From Baekduia alba (GTDB lineage: Bacteria > Actinomycetota > Thermoleophilia > Solirubrobacterales > Solirubrobacteraceae): 64,000 nt of DNA. Under the pieces are notes generated by a model. The model ran no database searches. It was not told the DNA's origin and worked only from the letters and a program-made list of their open reading frames with translations. Of this stretch, positions 897-61,688 are shown one piece after another. The stretch covers positions 4,588,001 through 4,652,000 of the forward strand of contig NZ_CP114013.1 of assembly GCF_028416635.1 (NCBI RefSeq). Reading direction: 5' to 3'. The position numbers and the translations under genes are program-made. Numbering within the stretch: the first letter of the stretch is position 1; every line of letters begins with the position of its first letter.

Positions 897-1645
897 ACGC
901 GCTCCCGGGTCTCGACAGGCTCCCGCGTGGTGATCTGGCGGGCCATCATCCGGGCGTAGCCGCCGATGGTCGGCAGCACCCGCATCTTGGACTCGCCGTC
1001 GCGACGCGACCAGTCCAGGGAGACCGGGACCTCCCGCACCGACGCGCCGCCGCGCACCATCTTGACCAGGATCTCCGCCTTGCAGGCGAAGCCCGCCTCG
1101 CGGATGAAGCGGTCCCCGTGCCGCGCATAGGCGTCGCGCAGGGCCGCTGCGCGGTAGACGCGGAAGAACGAGGAGACGGTCTTCGCGTCCAGCCCCGCGC
1201 CGCGGCGGATCGCCGTGGCGGCCGCCCGCGAGAGCAGGCGGCGGTGGGCCGAGACGTTGACCAGCTGGCCTTCGCCGTGGTGGGAGGCGAGCACGATGTC
1301 CGTGCCCTCCTGGGCGACCGCGAGCATCGTCGCGACCGCGTCGAGGTCGCTGGTCGTGTCGGACTCCATCGTGATGACGTAGTCGTCGTCGCCGCAGAGC
1401 TCGAGCGCGATGCGGAAGCCCTTGTCGAAGGCGCGGCCCGCGCCCTGGTTGCGGACCTGGCGGTGCAGGATCATCGGGACCGGGCCGTCGTAGGCCGCGG
1501 CGACGTCGGCCGTCGCGTCGGACGAGCCGTCGTCGACGATGATCACGTGGCCGCCCATCCACAGCCCTGGGCGCTCCTCGAGGTCGAGCAGCAGGCGCGG
1601 GAGGTTCGTCTCCTCGTTGTACGCCGGGATCACGAACACGTTCAT
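893..1645 (-). CDS. Family 2 glycosyltransferase (dolichyl-phosphate-mannose-synthase-like)
   Basis: The protein is 250 residues. It opens with MNVFVIPAYNEETNLPRLL, the classic GT-A start, followed by VIIVDDGSSDATAD near residue 40 for nucleotide binding and the acidic stretch ESDTTSDLD near residue 95. No transmembrane tail is evident, so it resembles the soluble catalytic part of polyprenyl-phosphate sugar synthases. The ATG at 1645-1643 shares one base with the TGA of the upstream sugar transferase, and its own stop overlaps the next start, so the three genes are translated as one unit. It probably adds a sugar to a lipid carrier or growing glycan. A longer upstream reading frame exists but lies inside the sugar transferase gene. 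Confidence 0.9.
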   Translation of the reverse strand: MNVFVIPAYNEETNLPRLLLDLEERPGLWMGGHVIIVDDGSSDATADVAAAYDGPVPMILHRQVRNQGAGRAFDKGFRIALELCGDDDYVITMESDTTSDLDAVATMLAVAQEGTDIVLASHHGEGQLVNVSAHRRLLSRAAATAIRRGAGLDAKTVSSFFRVYRAAALRDAYARHGDRFIREAGFACKAEILVKMVRGGASVREVPVSLDWSRRDGESKMRVLPTIGGYARMMARQITTREPVETRERV

Positions 1646-3174
1646 CAGTAGGCCCCCCGCTTGGCCAGGACGACCGGGATCGTCTGGCACAGGATCTTGA
1701 TGTCCCACCACAGGGACCAGTTGGTGACGTAGACGTAGTCGAGCTTGACCATCTCCTCGAAGGGGATGTCGTTGCGCCCGAGGACCTGCCAAAGGCCCGT
1801 GATGCCCGGGGTGGTGTCCAGGCGCTTGCCGGCCCAGCCCGTGATCCGCTCCGACTCGTGCACGACGAACGGGCGCGGGCCGACGAGGCTCATCTCGCCC
1901 TTCACGACGTTCCACAGCTGCGGCAGCTCGTCGATGCTGAGCTTGCGCAGCGTGGCGCCGATCCGCGTGATGCGCGGGTCGTCCTTGATCTTGAAGAGCG
2001 GCCCGCCGCCCTCCAGCTCGTTGAGGTGCGCGAGGTCCATGCGCTGGGCCTCGGCGTCCGCGCACATGGTGCGGAACTTGACGATGTTGAAGGCCTTGCC
2101 CCCACGCCCGTGCCGGGCCTGGCGGAAGAACACCGGGCCGCGGCTGTCGAGCTTGATCGCGATCGCCACCGCGATGAGCAGCGGCGACAGCACCAGGAGC
2201 CCGAGGCCCGCGGCGACGACGTCGAACGCGCGCTTCATCAGCAGCACGCTGCGCGAGAAGCGCAGCGGCGGCAGGCTGACCAGCGGCACGCCCTCGATGT
2301 CCTCGATCTCCGCGTTGGACGCGAACAGCTCGAAGTAGTCCGGGACGATCGACAGGTGGACGTCCGGGCGGCGCACCGCGCGGACGCGCTCCAGCGTGTC
2401 CTCGTAGGAGTCGCCCGTCGAGGTCAGGATCACCCAGTCGACGTCGAGCGCGTCGACCTGCGCGGTCAGCGCCGAGGTGCGGCCGACGACGTCGTCGCCG
2501 ACGCGCGGGTCGTCCTCGATGAAGCCGACGAACTCCAGGCCGTACTCGGGATGGCTGGCGAGCTTGCGCCGCATCAGCTGCCCGACCTCGCCGGCGCCGA
2601 CGATCAGCGTCCGGCGCGGGCGCATGACGCTCGGCAGGATCCAGGTGCGCACGACGCCGCGCAGCACCGGGACGCAGACCAGCGCGATGACCAGGAAGAA
2701 CATCGCCTCCAGCGGCGAGTAGATCGACCAGTCGGCCAGCCGCTTGGCGCCCTGGCCGATGACCAGGAGGACGAGCGAGCCGGCGAGCAGGGCGTGGAAC
2801 AGCGGCCCGACCTCGTCGAAGCTCGCGGGCGCCACGCGCCGGTCGTCGGTCTCGTAGAGCCGGTAGGCGGCGAAGACCGCCACCCAGACCACGGCGGCGA
2901 CGACGATCAGGCCGAGCTCGACGCCCGTGGGCGCGATGACGGCCGGCGGGCCGATCAGCTCGGCGAGCAGGTAGGTCCCCGCCAGCGCGATCGCGATCGA
3001 CAGCAGGTCGGCGAGCAGCAGCGCGCGGATGCGGCCACGGCTCAGCCCACCGCGACGGGCCTGCGCCGCCGTGCCCGTTTCGGGCACGACGTGCAGCGGG
3101 CCGCGCGCGGTGGCGCCTGCGATCTGCGATGACGACGACGGCTGGGACCCCGGCTCAGGAGGCGAGCTGCGCAT
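1645..3174 (-). CDS. Exopolysaccharide polyprenyl glycosylphosphotransferase (initiating sugar-1-phosphate transferase)
   Basis: The 509-residue protein has the layout of WbaP/CpsE-type enzymes. A cytoplasmic tail is followed by four membrane segments (about residues 50-72, 84-104, 126-144 and 152-172), a CoA-binding-like Rossmann domain beginning TLIVGAGEVGQ near 190, and a C-terminal sugar transferase domain from about 313 (KRAFDVVAAGLGLLVLSPLL, then GPVFFRQARHG and FNIVKFRTM). Such enzymes start polysaccharide repeat units by moving a sugar-1-phosphate from a UDP-sugar to undecaprenyl phosphate at the inner face of the membrane. The first 20 bases overlap the end of the upstream LuxR regulator gene, linking the two in one transcript. 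Confidence 0.92.
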   Translation of the reverse strand: MRSSPPEPGSQPSSSSQIAGATARGPLHVVPETGTAAQARRGGLSRGRIRALLLADLLSIAIALAGTYLLAELIGPPAVIAPTGVELGLIVVAAVVWVAVFAAYRLYETDDRRVAPASFDEVGPLFHALLAGSLVLLVIGQGAKRLADWSIYSPLEAMFFLVIALVCVPVLRGVVRTWILPSVMRPRRTLIVGAGEVGQLMRRKLASHPEYGLEFVGFIEDDPRVGDDVVGRTSALTAQVDALDVDWVILTSTGDSYEDTLERVRAVRRPDVHLSIVPDYFELFASNAEIEDIEGVPLVSLPPLRFSRSVLLMKRAFDVVAAGLGLLVLSPLLIAVAIAIKLDSRGPVFFRQARHGRGGKAFNIVKFRTMCADAEAQRMDLAHLNELEGGGPLFKIKDDPRITRIGATLRKLSIDELPQLWNVVKGEMSLVGPRPFVVHESERITGWAGKRLDTTPGITGLWQVLGRNDIPFEEMVKLDYVYVTNWSLWWDIKILCQTIPVVLAKRGAY

Positions 3175-3784
3175 GCGGGACCACGAGGTCGTTCATGTGC
3201 GCGTAGCGGGAGGCCTCTGTCCGGTTGGCCACACCCAGCTTGCGGTACGTGTTCGACAGGTGGAACTTGACGGTCTGCTCGGTCACCCACAGCTCGCGGG
3301 CGATCCGGCCGTTGGTCAGGCCCTGGGACGCGAGGCTCAGGATCTCCAGCTCACGCGACGTCAGCGGGCAGTCCGCCGCCTCGACGGGCGACTTGGCCCG
3401 GCGCGGACGGTGGATGACGCGGCCGTGCACGATCTCGCGCAGCAGCGTGCCCAGCGCGACCGGGTGCACCGACTTGGAGATCGCGGCCTCGGCGCCGGCG
3501 TCGAACGCCTCACCCAGCCAGTCGTCCTCGGTGCGGGTGGTCAACAGCATGGCCTTGGCGTCCGGGCAGTTCTCCGCGACCTCGCGGAGGCGCTCGAGCG
3601 GGTGCTCGGGGTTCTGCATGTCGTCCACGAGGACGACGTCCGGGCGGGCCTCGGCCAGCGCGGAGCGGATCTCCTGGCGGCCGTCGACGAACCCGACGAC
3701 CTGGAAGCCCGCCGTCTGGCGGAGGGCGAGGCGGATGGCCTGCACGACCAGCGTGTGGTCGGCGACGATGAGAAGACGCTTCAT
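3155..3784 (-). CDS. NarL/LuxR-family response regulator next to the polysaccharide genes
   Basis: The protein has 209 residues. An N-terminal receiver domain has the phospho-acceptor Asp54 in VVLVDD and a conserved Lys near 105 (AISKSV). A C-terminal LuxR helix-turn-helix runs from LTSRELEILSLASQGLTNGRIA to about residue 195. The acidic pair near the N-terminus is reduced to ADH instead of the usual DD or DDH, so metal binding could be weaker. No cognate kinase is adjacent. It overlaps the sugar transferase by 20 bases and lies 15 bases downstream of the UDP-sugar dehydrogenase gene, so it probably controls this glycan locus, possibly by autoregulation. Confidence 0.9.
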   Translation of the reverse strand: MKRLLIVADHTLVVQAIRLALRQTAGFQVVGFVDGRQEIRSALAEARPDVVLVDDMQNPEHPLERLREVAENCPDAKAMLLTTRTEDDWLGEAFDAGAEAAISKSVHPVALGTLLREIVHGRVIHRPRRAKSPVEAADCPLTSRELEILSLASQGLTNGRIARELWVTEQTVKFHLSNTYRKLGVANRTEASRYAHMNDLVVPHAQLAS

Positions 3785-3799
3785 GATCGATCAGGCTCC

Positions 3800-5074
3800 C
3801 TAAGCGGCCTTGACGGAGGCGAGCGTGACGCGCGACGCGGGCCGGGCGGTGGCGCGGCTGCGGCGGGTGACCCCGCGGAGGTCGACGACCTGGTGCTGCT
3901 CGCAGAGGCCGGCGTGGTCGATGCCCGGGTGGGCGGTGACGATGACCAGGACGTCGGCGAACTCCTTGAGGTCGTCGAGCGACGCGCTGCTGAGCTCGAA
4001 CTGCGAGAGCTCGGGCACGTAGGCGTCGTGGTAGGCGAGCTCGGCGCCGAGGGCGCCGAGGCGGCTGATGATCTTCAGCGCCGGGCTCTCGCGGATGTCG
4101 CCGACGCCGCCCTTGTAGGAGACGCCCAGGATGCCGATGCGCGTGCCCTTGACCGGCATGCCCATCTCGTTGAGGCGACGCTCGACCTTCTCGACCGCCA
4201 GGTACGGCGCGTGCTGGTTGACCTTGCCGGCGAGCTCGATGAACTCGGTGGAGAACTCGTACTCGCGCGCCTTCCAGGCCAGGTAGAACGGGTCGACCGG
4301 GAGGCAGTGGCCGCCCATGCCGGGGCCCGGCTCGAAGCGCATGAAGCCGTAGGGCTTGGTCGAGGCCGCGTCGATGACCTCCCAGATGTCGATGCCCATC
4401 CGGTCGGCGAGCTCGGCCATCTCGTTGATCAACGCGATGTTGACCGAGCGGAAGATGTTCTCGAGCAGCTTGGCCATCTCGGCGCTCTCGAGCTCCGAGG
4501 TGCGGACGAGCTGGTCGCAGACCAGGCCGTACAGGGCCTCGGCCGCGTTGCCGCAGGTCTCGGTGAGGCCGGCGACGATCTTCGGCGTCGTCTTCAGGGT
4601 CCAGTCGGTCCGGCCCGGGTCAACACGCTCGGGCGAGAAGGCCAGGTGGAAGTCGACGCCGGCGCGCAGGCCGGACTCCTCCAGGATCGGCAGCGCCCGC
4701 TCGCGGGTCGTGCCGGGGTAGGTCGTGGACTCCAGGACCACCAGCTGGCCGGCCTGCAGCACGGTCGCGATGGACTGGCACGCGTCCACGAGCGGCGTCA
4801 GATCCGGCTCGCGGTTCGGCGTCAGCGGCGTCGGGACGCACACGATGATCGCGTCCACCTTCGCCAGCGCGGCGATCCGGGTGGTCGCCTCGATGCGGTC
4901 GGAGACCGCCTGCAACTGCTCGGACGGGACGTCCTCGATGTACGACTCGCCGCAGCGCAGCTGTGCCACGCGACGTGCGTTCACCTCGATGCCGACGACG
5001 TGCTCACCGGCTTCGGCGAAGCTGACGGCCAGTGGGAGCCCCACATAGCCGAGTCCAACGATCCCAACGCTCAT
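3800..5074 (-). CDS. UDP-glucose/GDP-mannose-family nucleotide sugar dehydrogenase (UDP-ManNAc/GlcNAc 6-dehydrogenase-like)
   Basis: At 424 residues the length fits the family. The N-terminal NAD-binding motif is VGIVGLGYVGLPLA. The central domain carries TTYPGTTRE, and the catalytic cysteine sits in GPGMGGHCLPVDPFYL. The C-terminal UDP-sugar domain contains ILGVSYKGGVGDIRESP. These enzymes make a nucleotide-activated uronic acid by a four-electron oxidation. The GHC.PVDP signature leans to the WecC/WbpA group (N-acetylhexosamine substrates) over plain UDP-glucose dehydrogenase, but this is an inference. It is the first gene of the glycan operon; GGGGTGAG just upstream of its ATG serves as ribosome binding site. 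Confidence 0.92.
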   Translation of the reverse strand: MSVGIVGLGYVGLPLAVSFAEAGEHVVGIEVNARRVAQLRCGESYIEDVPSEQLQAVSDRIEATTRIAALAKVDAIIVCVPTPLTPNREPDLTPLVDACQSIATVLQAGQLVVLESTTYPGTTRERALPILEESGLRAGVDFHLAFSPERVDPGRTDWTLKTTPKIVAGLTETCGNAAEALYGLVCDQLVRTSELESAEMAKLLENIFRSVNIALINEMAELADRMGIDIWEVIDAASTKPYGFMRFEPGPGMGGHCLPVDPFYLAWKAREYEFSTEFIELAGKVNQHAPYLAVEKVERRLNEMGMPVKGTRIGILGVSYKGGVGDIRESPALKIISRLGALGAELAYHDAYVPELSQFELSSASLDDLKEFADVLVIVTAHPGIDHAGLCEQHQVVDLRGVTRRSRATARPASRVTLASVKAA

Positions 5075-5408
5075 TTGATCTCACCCCACGTTGCTCTCGG
5101 GCCACGCTCGCCGCCGTCCCGCTTCCTGCGCTCCAGCGACGCTCGCCCAACGACCAGGATCTTGCGCGCCGGGCCTGGTCGGTGGCAGGGGATATCTGGG
5201 GTACGCCGACGGGGAAGTTCCCCCGATCGAGGGGGGTAGGGCCGCCACCCTCATGGGTGAGAACACTCCCCCATGCCCCCTGGCCGATGCGCTAGGGCGG
5301 CTCTCAGTGGCGCAATGGCGCCTAGTGGTCTAGACCTTCACCGATCAGTGGTCTAGACGTCGCGGACGTGGGACGCCCGACGTCCAGCTGTCACACGTCC
5401 CCGCCATC
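5075..5408. promoter_or_regulatory. Gene-free leader upstream of the glycan operon with several palindromes
   Basis: No gene is seen here. The stretch holds symmetric sites: GGGGAAGTTCCCC at 5211-5223, CACCCTCATGGGTG near 5247, and two copies of the 12-mer AGTGGTCTAGAC (5324-5335 and 5347-5358), each ending in the palindrome GTCTAGAC, 23 bases apart. Spacing near two helical turns suits cooperative binding of a dimeric regulator. It lies 130-290 bases upstream of the dehydrogenase start, so it is the natural promoter and operator region of the glycan operon. No clear -35/-10 pair could be fixed. Confidence 0.45.
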
Positions 5409-5726
5409 GGCGGCAGAACGCGACGCTCGCCTCAGACGTCTTCGGGAGCGTCGACGCCGTTGGCGGCAGAACGCGACGCTCGCCTCAGACGTCTTCGGGA
5501 GCGTCGACGCCGTTGGCGGCAGAACGCGACGCTCGCCTCAGACGTCTTCGGGAGCGTCGACGCCGTTGGCGGCAGAACGCGACGCTCGCCTCAGACGTCT
5601 TCGGGAGCGTCGACGCCGTTGGCGGCAGAACGCGACGCTCGCCTCAGACGTCTTCGGGAGCGTCGACGCCGTTGGCGGCAGAACGCGACGCTCGCCTCAG
5701 ACGTCTTCGGGAGCGTCGACGCCGTT
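5409..5726. repeat. Six exact tandem copies of a 53-bp unit overlapping a response-regulator 3' end
   Basis: Units start at 5409, 5462, 5515, 5568, 5621 and 5674, and the match breaks at 5727. Each unit contains the palindrome AGACGTCT inside a loop bounded by CGACGCTC and GAGCGTCG, an 8-base inverted repeat. The last unit includes the final codons and TGA of the response regulator gene ending at 5697, so the array looks like an expansion of that gene's 3' end, each copy repeating the same tail and stop. Since 53 is not a multiple of three, the copies fall in different frames and are unlikely to be coding. There are no spacers, so it is not CRISPR. Confidence 0.95.
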
Positions 5727-6404
5727 GGCGGCGAACGTGGCCCGGATGCCGTTGGCGATCGAGATCGCCTCGGCCTGCGAGTGCGCGCCGAGCTTGCGCA
5801 GCAGGCGCTTGACGTGGGTCCGGACCGTGTCACGCGCGAGCACCAGCTCGTCGGAGATCTGGTCCACGGTGCGCCCGGCGCACAGGAGGTCCAGGACCTC
5901 CCACTCGCGCGGGGTGAGCTTGCTGCGCACCGGTCGCACGCCCTGGCCGCCGACGGGCAGGGCGCGCAGGCTGTCGATCAGCCGCCACGTCAGCTCCGGG
6001 CCGATCACCGGCTCCCCCGCCGCCATCCGCTGCACGCACGCGACGATCTCGGACACCGGCACGCCCTTGACCTGGTGCCCGGCGGCGCCGGCGCGCAGGC
6101 CGACCATCCCGAGGTCGACGTCGTCGGAGGCGGTCAGCAGCAGGATCTTCACCGACGGCGCCCGCTCGACGATCGCGCGCGTCGCCGACAGGCCGTCGAT
6201 GTTGGCCATGACGATGTCCATGATCATCACGTCGGGCCGGAAGTGCGCGGCGAGGTCGATCGCGTCGCGGCCGTTGTCGGCCTCGGCGATGACGGTCAGG
6301 CCCGCGTCCTGCAGCGCGGCGCGCAGGCGACCGCGCAGCTCCATGTCGTCGTCGACGACGACGACGCGTGCGGGCTGGGTTCCGTCCTGTCCGCCGCGCG
6401 CCAC
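5697..6404 (-). CDS. NarL/LuxR-family response regulator
   Basis: The protein has 235 residues and a GTG start. The receiver domain has the acidic pair in VVVVDDD (about 17-20), acceptor Asp63 in VMIMDIVMANIDG and Lys in HQVKGVP. The LuxR DNA-binding domain starts at KLTPREWEVLDLLCAGRTVD and ends near residue 220. It is a paralogue of the regulator at 7529-8227, sharing LTxREWEVLDLLC and similar linkers. It closes a four-gene signalling operon and its last codons lie in the first unit of the 53-bp array, so its transcript probably runs into that array. Confidence 0.92.
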   Translation of the reverse strand: MARGGQDGTQPARVVVVDDDMELRGRLRAALQDAGLTVIAEADNGRDAIDLAAHFRPDVMIMDIVMANIDGLSATRAIVERAPSVKILLLTASDDVDLGMVGLRAGAAGHQVKGVPVSEIVACVQRMAAGEPVIGPELTWRLIDSLRALPVGGQGVRPVRSKLTPREWEVLDLLCAGRTVDQISDELVLARDTVRTHVKRLLRKLGAHSQAEAISIANGIRATFAANGVDAPEDV

Positions 6405-6438
6405 GATGGGCGCAGTATGCCGGCCGCGGCCGGCGCTG

Positions 6439-6849
6439 TCATGCGCCTTCGGTGCCGCGCGCCACGTCGACGATCGCCGCGCGCACCAGCGCGAGGTCGG
6501 TCGTCTTGGGGATGTGCAACGCGACGAGGCGGGCCTCGGCGGGCGCGACGAGGTCCGGCTCGAAGCCGCTGAAGGTCACGATCGGCACGCCGGGCGCGGT
6601 CGTCGTCATGCGCTGCAGCAGCTCGCCGGGCGGCGGCCCGGGCATCTGGAGGTCGAGGACGATGACGTCGGGCGAGAGGTCGACGGCGAGCACGAGCGCG
6701 TCGCGCCCGTCGGCTGCCTCGCCCACGACGAGCACCGGCGGCTGCTCCCCCTCGCGCATCAGCGCCCAGCGCAGCAGCGCGCGCATCTCGGAGGCGTCGT
6801 CGGCCAGGAGGACGCGGACGGTGGTGGCGGGATGGTCGGGGTCGGTCAT
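6439..6849 (-). CDS. Stand-alone receiver-domain protein (CheY-like)
   Basis: The 136-residue protein is a receiver domain only, with no output domain. The key residues are present: acidic pair in LLADDAS, acceptor Asp66 in VIVLDLQMPG, Ser in TFSG and Lys in HIPKTTD. The ATG shares one base with the TGA of the histidine kinase gene upstream, so kinase and receiver are made together. Lone receivers of this type act as phosphate sinks, relays or protein-protein switches. Here it may set the balance between the kinase and the two LuxR regulators on either side. The longer open frame upstream is a shadow of the kinase gene. Confidence 0.88.
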   Translation of the reverse strand: MTDPDHPATTVRVLLADDASEMRALLRWALMREGEQPPVLVVGEAADGRDALVLAVDLSPDVIVLDLQMPGPPPGELLQRMTTTAPGVPIVTFSGFEPDLVAPAEARLVALHIPKTTDLALVRAAIVDVARGTEGA

Positions 6850-7532
6850 CAGCGGGAGGCGGGCAGCTCGACGGTGATGATCGTCGCACCGTCGGACCGC
6901 ACCTCCATCCCGATGCGTCCGCCGAGGCGTTCGACGAGGCGCCGGCACACCGGCAGGCTCACGCCGGCGCCCACCAGCGGGCCGCGGCCGCGCGGCCGCC
7001 CGAACGGCTCGAAGGGCTGCGTGCCCTCGCGGGCGGGCGTGCCGTTGTCGAAGAGCTCGACGACCACCTCGTCGCCCTCGACCCGCCCGGTGATCCCCAG
7101 CCGCGTGGCGCCGGCGGCCAGCGCCGTGCGCACCAGGTGCCCGAACACGCGGCGCGCGTCGCCGGCCTCGATCGCCGCGCGCGGCAGCGGCTCGCGCTGC
7201 ACGTGGACCGGCGCGCGATGCAGGTAGGTCTCGAGGTCGGCGAGCGCCACGTCCAGCGCCGGGTCGAGGTCGGTCGCGGCGTGCTCGATGGGCTCGGCGG
7301 AGGCCCTGACCACGTCGAGCAGGTCGTCGACGTAGCGCTGCGCGCGGTCGCCGCCGGCGCTGAGCGCGCGGAGCGCGTCCTGCCCGCCCGGGCCCAACGA
7401 CCCGCCCTGGCTGTCGAGCACGGAGGCGGCGCCGCGCATGAGCGCGATCGCCTCTCCGAGCTGATGGGCCGCCAGGGCGGCGAACGCCTCGAGGCCGTCC
7501 TGCGCGGCGAGCGCAGGCTCCTCGGGGTTCAT
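6849..7532 (-). CDS. Small cytoplasmic histidine-kinase-like protein with atypical N-box
   Basis: The protein is 227 residues without membrane segments or a sensor domain. A phospho-acceptor helix contains His23 (AAHQLGEAIALM), and an ATPase-like domain follows with VVELFDNGTP near 158-166 and a G2-like GAGVSLPVCRRLVERLGG. The usual N-box Asn is replaced by Thr136 (GHLVRTALAAG), and the second G-box lacks the normal GTGLGL, so ATP binding or turnover may be weak. The start overlaps the stop of the upstream regulator (ATGA at 7529-7532) and its own stop overlaps the lone receiver start. It may be a phosphatase or scaffold partner of the adjacent regulators. Confidence 0.8.
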   Translation of the reverse strand: MNPEEPALAAQDGLEAFAALAAHQLGEAIALMRGAASVLDSQGGSLGPGGQDALRALSAGGDRAQRYVDDLLDVVRASAEPIEHAATDLDPALDVALADLETYLHRAPVHVQREPLPRAAIEAGDARRVFGHLVRTALAAGATRLGITGRVEGDEVVVELFDNGTPAREGTQPFEPFGRPRGRGPLVGAGVSLPVCRRLVERLGGRIGMEVRSDGATIITVELPASR

Positions 7533-61511: not shown

Positions 61512-61576
61512 GGCGTGGTCCGGCGCGGGCTGGGCGGAGCGTTGCGGCGCCGGAGAGGGGCAAAGCTAGCATCGCG

Positions 61577-61688
61577 CACGCAGTGACGACCCCGGTTGAA
61601 CTCCCGCGACGCGGGCGATGCTCGGCATCTGCCCACGCAGTGACGACCCCGGTTGAACTCCCGCGACGCGGGCGATGCTCGGCATCTG
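61577..61688. repeat. Two direct copies of a 55-base unit at an epimerase gene start
   Basis: Identical 55-base copies at 61577-61631 and 61634-61688 have a 57-base period. Each contains GTG ACG ACC (a candidate start codon) and the hairpin CCCGCGACGCGGG. The period equals 19 codons, so the gene can be read from either copy in the same frame. Confidence 0.9.

What the first reader, a model, noticed from the sequence alone, without database searches (positions are those of the whole stretch)
5409..5726. Six perfect 53-bp tandem copies made from a response-regulator gene end
The unit is exact over 318 bases and includes the last codons and stop of the regulator gene ending at 5697. Each copy has a palindrome AGACGTCT inside an 8-base inverted repeat, giving a string of identical stem-loops. 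Perfect identity suggests recent expansion or ongoing copy-number change. Possible roles: a terminator array, a variable-number switch on read-through to the glycan operon, or a protein-binding array. The period is not a multiple of three, so it is not a coding repeat.
Basis: seen in the sequence. Interest (0 to 1): 0.7.

Follow-up and report, generated by a model that had tools for sequence, protein, structure and literature searches.

The report
Recent minisatellite at a gene end
The tail end of a regulator gene has been copied six times in a row without changing the protein, one of several such recent DNA 'stutters' in this bacterium's genome, most likely a neutral copying by-product rather than a switch.

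Summary
Six exact 53-bp copies span the stop codon of a LuxR/NarL-type response regulator (5697-6404, minus); period-53 identity is unbroken over 5409-5732. The first copy always supplies the last codons and stop, so copy number cannot change the protein. The unit occurs at one place in the genome. The nearest relative, G006, has two diverged tail copies about 55 bp apart; in G003 and G001 I see no repeat. So an older duplication was recently expanded here.

The array is not special in its genome. In a 1.664-Mb sample (28%), 14 arrays of >=90% match lie outside or at the ends of genes; samples of two congeners (0.8 Mb) show none. Nine of the 14 have 50-59-bp units. Another array is an in-frame insert in a maf gene that 4 of 4 relatives lack.

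Functional roles gain no support: no T-run terminator, ordinary single-unit folding, palindrome and full stem not kept in G006, and a downstream leader block conserved without the array. Best reading: a near-neutral minisatellite grown by slippage or unequal recombination, of the same kind as mycobacterial ETR/VNTR loci.

The parts
5409..5732 (-). exact tandem array, 53-bp unit, 6.1 copies (on the minus strand the first unit begins inside the regulator gene's 3' end)
5391..5414 (-). decayed outer copy of the regulator tail, reads AADGGDV-stop; overlaps the edge of the exact array (TRF edge 5402)
5733..5737 (-). upstream edge of the period inside the regulator gene (imperfect)
5697..6404 (-). 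NarL/LuxR-type response regulator (Response_reg + GerE); its last 11 codons and TGA lie in the first copy
5421..5453 (-). stem CGACGCTC/GAGCGTCG with 17-nt loop containing AGACGTCT, repeated every 53 bp (last-but-edge copy given as example)
   Evidence: sequence, folds
5347..5359 (+). dre-like GntR/DasR-type operator (12 of 13 to AGTGGTCTAGACC) beside the array
   Evidence: consensus from PMC4398421
5324..5336 (+). dre-like operator (13 of 13)
5185..5220 (-). block of the downstream leader conserved in own, G006, G003 and G001 (GAAC.TC.CCG.C ... CCCCTGC)
3800..5074 (-). UDP-glucose/GDP-mannose dehydrogenase (UGD), first gene after the array; followed by LuxR regulator 3155-3784, sugar transferase 1645-3174, glycosyltransferase 893-1648

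Best explanation
A locus-specific minisatellite. The 3' end of the regulator gene (last codons, stop and a short spacer) was duplicated once, probably in the ancestor shared with G006, leaving two imperfect direct repeats about 53-55 bp apart. In this lineage, replication slippage or unequal recombination between such repeats then multiplied the 53-bp unit to six identical copies, leaving a decayed copy at the outer edge. Because each added copy lies behind the first stop codon and ahead of the conserved leader of the next gene, the change leaves both proteins alone and is tolerated. It is one product of a genome-wide recent spate of short tandem duplications in this lineage. Shown: the array, its origin from the gene end, its recency relative to congeners, the decayed edge, the other arrays. 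Inferred: slippage or recombination as the mechanism, and near-neutrality.
For: Exact six-copy array with a diverged outer edge reading AADGGDV*. G006 carries a second, diverged tail copy ending in its own stop (ATSGDAPEPDEV*), spacing 55. In G003 and G001 I see no second tail copy. The full array query matches the own genome once; of 146 family genomes (own included) 37 have a hit at E <= 0.01, all but own short and weak, the best being G006's tail region. Own genome: 18 arrays of period >=30, >=90% match and >=1.9 copies in 1,664,000 bases; 16 of these 18 units were compared and none resemble each other. No relative site that I could read had an array: murG-murC (3 genomes), pstS-pstC (3), glmM-glmS (3), window 61569 (2), L137 (1) (TRF). 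The 4 arrays I class as inside genes all have periods divisible by 3, whereas 11 of the 14 others do not. A 36-bp x 5 in-frame insert in maf is absent from 4 of 4 relatives.
Against: Arrays contain a called stop codon somewhat more often than random intervals of array length (8 of 14 against 36%; unit-length random 17%), which could hint at more than chance placement, but the numbers are small. Two joined units fold better than all 200 shuffles (z -3.3). With a looser cut the own genome's excess is only about twofold (21.6 arrays per Mb against 9.5 and 13.2), and G006 has one older 56-bp array (84% match), so the process is not confined to this lineage. TRF does not see G006's diverged pair, so diverged copies elsewhere in relatives can be missed. 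Perfect identity is also what selection or gene conversion would keep. Neutrality was not measured. In M. tuberculosis a comparable array's length correlates with expression of the next gene (PMC2734929 passages).
Confidence: 0.7

Rival explanations
1. Functional variable-number element: the array's length tunes read-through or mRNA stability between the regulator and the glycan genes, as reported for the rnc-fpg1 array of M. tuberculosis.
For: It lies between two co-directional genes; two tandem units together fold better than 200 of 200 shuffles (z -3.3); published precedent for a length effect.
Against: A leader block between array and next gene is conserved in relatives without the array; a single 53-nt unit folds like ordinary gene ends (z -0.59; all 14 arrays mean z -0.35, sem 0.26); no T-run terminator (where shuffles give only 0.3, so the scan has little power); similar arrays sit in unrelated places (murG-murC, pstS-pstC, glmM-glmS).
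Confidence: 0.16
2. Protein-binding array: the AGACGTCT palindromes are operators, for example of the response regulator itself.
For: Six regularly spaced palindromes (53 bp, about five helical turns) beside a regulator gene; in this window AGACGTCT is confined to the array.
Against: The palindrome lies mostly within the coding end of the gene and is absent from both G006 tail copies; no such array seen in G003 or G001.
Confidence: 0.05
3. Assembly artefact: false expansion of a one- or two-copy repeat.
For: No reads available; the whole array is 336 bp, longer than a typical short read.
Against: Single-contig genome; the edge copy here and copies in several other arrays differ from each other, which is not expected of a copying error in assembly; G006 has its own diverged second copy.
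Confidence: 0.05
4. Dispersed repeat family (MIRU- or REP-like element) that landed here.
For: Unit size within the published MIRU range of 46-101 bp (PMC3914561); next to a regulator gene.
Against: One place in its genome and its sequence is the regulator's own tail; 16 array units compared are unrelated.
Confidence: 0.02

Closest known systems
M. tuberculosis exact tandem repeats (ETR) / VNTR loci, in particular rnc-fpg1 (ETR-F, VNTR3239)
   Same: Lineage-specific array with identical copies in the spacer between the stop of one gene and the next co-directional gene; other mycobacteria have short spacers (1 to 54 bp in the rows I saw); five identical 37-bp copies within 55- and 79-bp units; ETR units given as 53-79 bp (PMC2734929 and PMC3914561 passages).
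   Different: There the array starts 40 bp after the stop, strain variation is documented and length correlates with expression; here the unit includes the gene's last codons and stop, and no strain or expression data exist.
Mycobacterial interspersed repetitive units (MIRU)
   Same: 46-101-bp tandem units, mostly intergenic and thought to be co-transcribed in operons (PMC3635867 passage); first described in a two-component operon (title in that paper's reference list).
   Different: MIRUs are scattered at 41 loci and, as I recall, form one homologous family; this unit is unique to one place and home-grown from the adjacent gene.

Membership tests
Minisatellite / VNTR-type locus (ETR-like) | head-to-tail copies of a unit of tens of bp, near-identical | tested here: met
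Minisatellite / VNTR-type locus (ETR-like) | lineage-restricted copy number (relatives with fewer copies) | tested here: met
   G006 two diverged copies; none seen in G003 and G001
Minisatellite / VNTR-type locus (ETR-like) | copy number varies between strains | not testable with these tools
   no second strain of the species was found in the searches made
MIRU family | homologous units dispersed at many loci | tested here: not met
   one match in the own genome; 16 array units compared are dissimilar
Intrinsic terminator array | GC-rich hairpin followed by a T-run | tested here: not met
   0 sites found in 4900-5900; shuffles 0.3
Structured RNA element | match to an Rfam family | tested here: not met
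   0 matches up to E = 1 in window 4000-7000
Structured RNA element | stem conserved between species | tested here: not met
   one arm (CGACGCTC) survives in G006's second copy, its partner does not; neither arm in the first copy

The most novel reading that the evidence does not exclude
High-GC actinobacteria have a duplication process with a preferred step of about 50-59 bp, unusually active in this lineage. In the sample 9 of 14 non-genic recent arrays have periods of 50-59 and none of 60-83; the nearest relative's own tail duplication is spaced 55 and its sample holds an older 56-bp array; M. tuberculosis ETRs are reported as 53-79 bp. If so, the step size reflects the replication or repair machinery rather than the sequences themselves, and these arrays are its footprint.
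Probability: 0.2. Interest if true: 0.6.

Novelty: new member of a known kind. Interest (0 to 1): 0.33.

Why it matters
It shows how a compact genome accumulates tandem repeats where they do least harm: behind a stop codon, in a spacer, or in frame inside a gene. A genome with an extrapolated 50 or so recent non-genic arrays (14 in 28% of it), beside two congeners with none that recent in 0.8 Mb, is a natural case for asking what turns minisatellite growth on in one lineage, and why the step is so often about 55 bp.

Tried and rejected
Plasmid collection: no match. Rfam: none. Loss of the NucS endonuclease as a cause of the arrays: not supported, own genome and all six congeners searched have NucS_C (18 of 25 genomes). 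Hairpin strength as a general cause: single-unit folding of the 14 arrays is ordinary (mean z -0.35, sem 0.26). Relation among units of different arrays: none among the 16 compared; L185 and L188, found later, were not compared. Promoter scan: 0 found, but 0 also in shuffles, so it says nothing. Literature: searches for MIRU with senX3-regX3 and stop codon, MIRU with 53 bp, intergenic tandem repeats with slipped-strand mispairing, and MIRU-VNTR with repeat unit length gave 0 papers; Conexibacter with tandem repeats gave one CRISPR paper, seen in the listing only. Searches gave listings; only passages were read of PMC2734929, PMC3635867, PMC3914561, PMC4333415 and PMC4398421. No search was made for prior reports of such arrays in this species by name, because its name is not known to me.

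Rows dropped and limits: of 18 arrays, four were set aside by hand as lying inside genes, leaving 14. L073 and L131 lie within called genes; L068 and L119 were not in called genes and I judged them coding before checking, which bears out only in that long open frames cross them (1009 and 2747 codons); their periods, divisible by three, were known when I chose. L129 is kept although open frames cross it; L116:19847 is cut by the end of its stretch. The sample includes the window that held the finding (2 of the 14 arrays). The gene caller is home-made. At orthologous sites G003 was not readable for murG-murC, and at glmM-glmS an offset error of mine printed the wrong stretch; G003 and G005 were fetched but not printed for window 61569; G005 had no good pstS match. 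TRF over 22 relative sequences found only weak arrays (73-81% matches), in four of them, none at the sites in question by their coordinates; it does not detect G006's diverged tail pair.

Full report
What is there. The window lies in a single-contig 5,863,246-bp genome (G000:C1:4588001-4652000). An 87%-identical regulator comes from a MAG labelled Conexibacter sp. whose contig length equals that of G003, a congener, so this is a Conexibacter-like actinobacterium (inference). The regulator at 5697-6404 (minus) has receiver and LuxR-type domains. Its 3' end runs into six exact 53-bp copies: exact period over 5409-5732, TRF 5402-5737, 6.4 copies. Read on the minus strand, each copy contains AANGVDAPEDV-stop and a 17-nt spacer. 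53 is not a multiple of three and the first stop comes in the first copy, so any copy number leaves the protein unchanged.

Origin. Orthologues in three congeners were read. In G006 (91% identical protein) the tail FAATSGDAPDEV-stop is followed by a second, diverged tail ending ATSGDAPEPDEV-stop, 55 bp on. In this genome the outermost copy is also decayed and reads AADGGDV-stop. Both continue into a GTCTAGACCAC sequence. In G003 and G001 I see no second tail; TRF at period >=25 finds nothing in those loci, but it also misses the diverged pair of G006, so the reading rests on the sequence. The simplest history is one old tail duplication before the split from G006, then recent expansion here. 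The imperfect direct repeats left by the old duplication are natural seeds for slippage.

Not special in this genome. A spaced sample of the own genome (window plus 80 stretches of 20 kb, 1,664,000 bases) has 18 arrays with period >=30, >=90% matches and >=1.9 copies. Four are inside genes by my judgement, all with periods divisible by three (and the limits told under tried and rejected); 14 are outside or at gene ends, 11 of them not divisible by three. Samples of G006 (420 kb) and G001 (380 kb) have 2 and 1 arrays by the same cut, all three in called genes with periods divisible by three. If the rate were equal, all 14 falling in the own sample would have probability about 0.004 (hand calculation from the sample sizes; the window, which was chosen for its array, is included). 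With a looser automatic cut the own sample has 36 arrays not inside called genes, 16 of them >=90% identical, against 4 and 5 in the relatives, none >=90%; per megabase the loose counts are 21.6, 9.5 and 13.2, so the excess lies mainly in recent arrays. G006 has one older 56-bp array there (84%). Relatives have no array at murG-murC, pstS-pstC, glmM-glmS, the window's 61569 site and L137 where I could read them. A maf gene carries a 36-bp x 5 in-frame insert that splits the protein match in 4 of 4 relatives. The 16 units compared are unrelated, so the common factor is a process and not an element. NucS is present, so its loss is not the cause.

Does it do anything? Tests for function came out flat. 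No T-run terminator was found in 4900-5900 (a scan with little power here) and no Rfam match in 4000-7000. Two joined units fold better than shuffles (z -3.3), which an inverted repeat in tandem favours by itself; single-unit energies are ordinary for gene ends of this genome. Arrays contain a called stop in 8 of 14 cases against 36% for random intervals of array length touching non-coding DNA, a weak excess. The AGACGTCT palindrome is in neither G006 copy, and of the stem only one arm survives, in the second copy. Beyond the array lies a leader with a block conserved in all four species, with or without the array; in own and G001 it precedes UDP-glucose dehydrogenase, in G006 and G003 that gene is missing at this place. 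Two dre-like operators lie between array and that block. In the window alone such matches are not beyond chance (4 found, 10 of 100 shuffles reach 4), but genome-wide the 13-base pattern gives 8 hits at 7 places against 0 for the reversed pattern. They match the published DasR consensus A(G/C)TGGTCTAGACCA(G/C)T in part (PMC4398421 passage), and the same motif lies directly before nagA and before a sugar-binding-protein/GntR-UTRA/SIS gene cluster elsewhere in the genome. So control of the next gene most likely sits in that region and not in the array (inference).

Comparison. The closest known things are the exact tandem repeats of M. tuberculosis, in particular the rnc-fpg1 locus, where other mycobacteria have short spacers, five identical 37-bp copies occur, and longer arrays go with higher fpg1 mRNA (PMC2734929 passages). 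ETR units are given as 53-79 bp and MIRUs as 46-101 bp (PMC3914561 passage). The present array fits the general kind (minisatellite) but not a dispersed family like MIRU. Strain variation, the V in VNTR, could not be tested.

Verdict. A real, recent, locus-specific minisatellite of ordinary kind, most likely near-neutral. The point worth keeping is the genome-wide excess of recent arrays and the cluster of unit lengths at 50-59 bp (9 of 14), which no test here explains.

Noticed in passing
own genome sample: L066:17602-17790, L075:13003-13254, L116:7458-7659, L128:13521-13698, L130:11545-11720, L137:3280-3354, L185:1375-1540, L188:14866-15051 and others: Other recent tandem arrays (the 14 non-genic ones have units of 34-89 bp, 9 of them 50-59 bp), e.g. 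between pstS and pstC, murG and murC, glmM and glmS; absent in relatives where checked.
   Followed up: partly
L073:18062-18247: In-frame 36-bp unit repeated 5.2 times exactly inside a Maf-family gene, adding about 60 residues that 4 of 4 congeners lack.
   Followed up: partly
window 5324-5336 and 5347-5359; L063 near 13445 and 18574: DasR/NagR-type dre-like operators before the UDP-glucose dehydrogenase gene, before nagA and before a sugar-binding protein/GntR-UTRA/SIS cluster: a possible GlcNAc-responsive regulon that includes the glycan operon (8 hits at 7 places with up to 1 mismatch against 0 in the reversed-pattern control).
   Followed up: partly
window 61569-61688: 57-bp unit, 2.1 copies, at the called start of a C5-epimerase-domain gene; G006 and G001 show no repeat there.
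   Followed up: partly
L003 after 2193 (G006) and L004 (G003), against window 3800-5074: The UDP-glucose dehydrogenase gene is missing at this place in G006 and G003: the leader remains (in G006 with the first bases of the gene's start), followed by a LuxR-type regulator reading.
   Followed up: no
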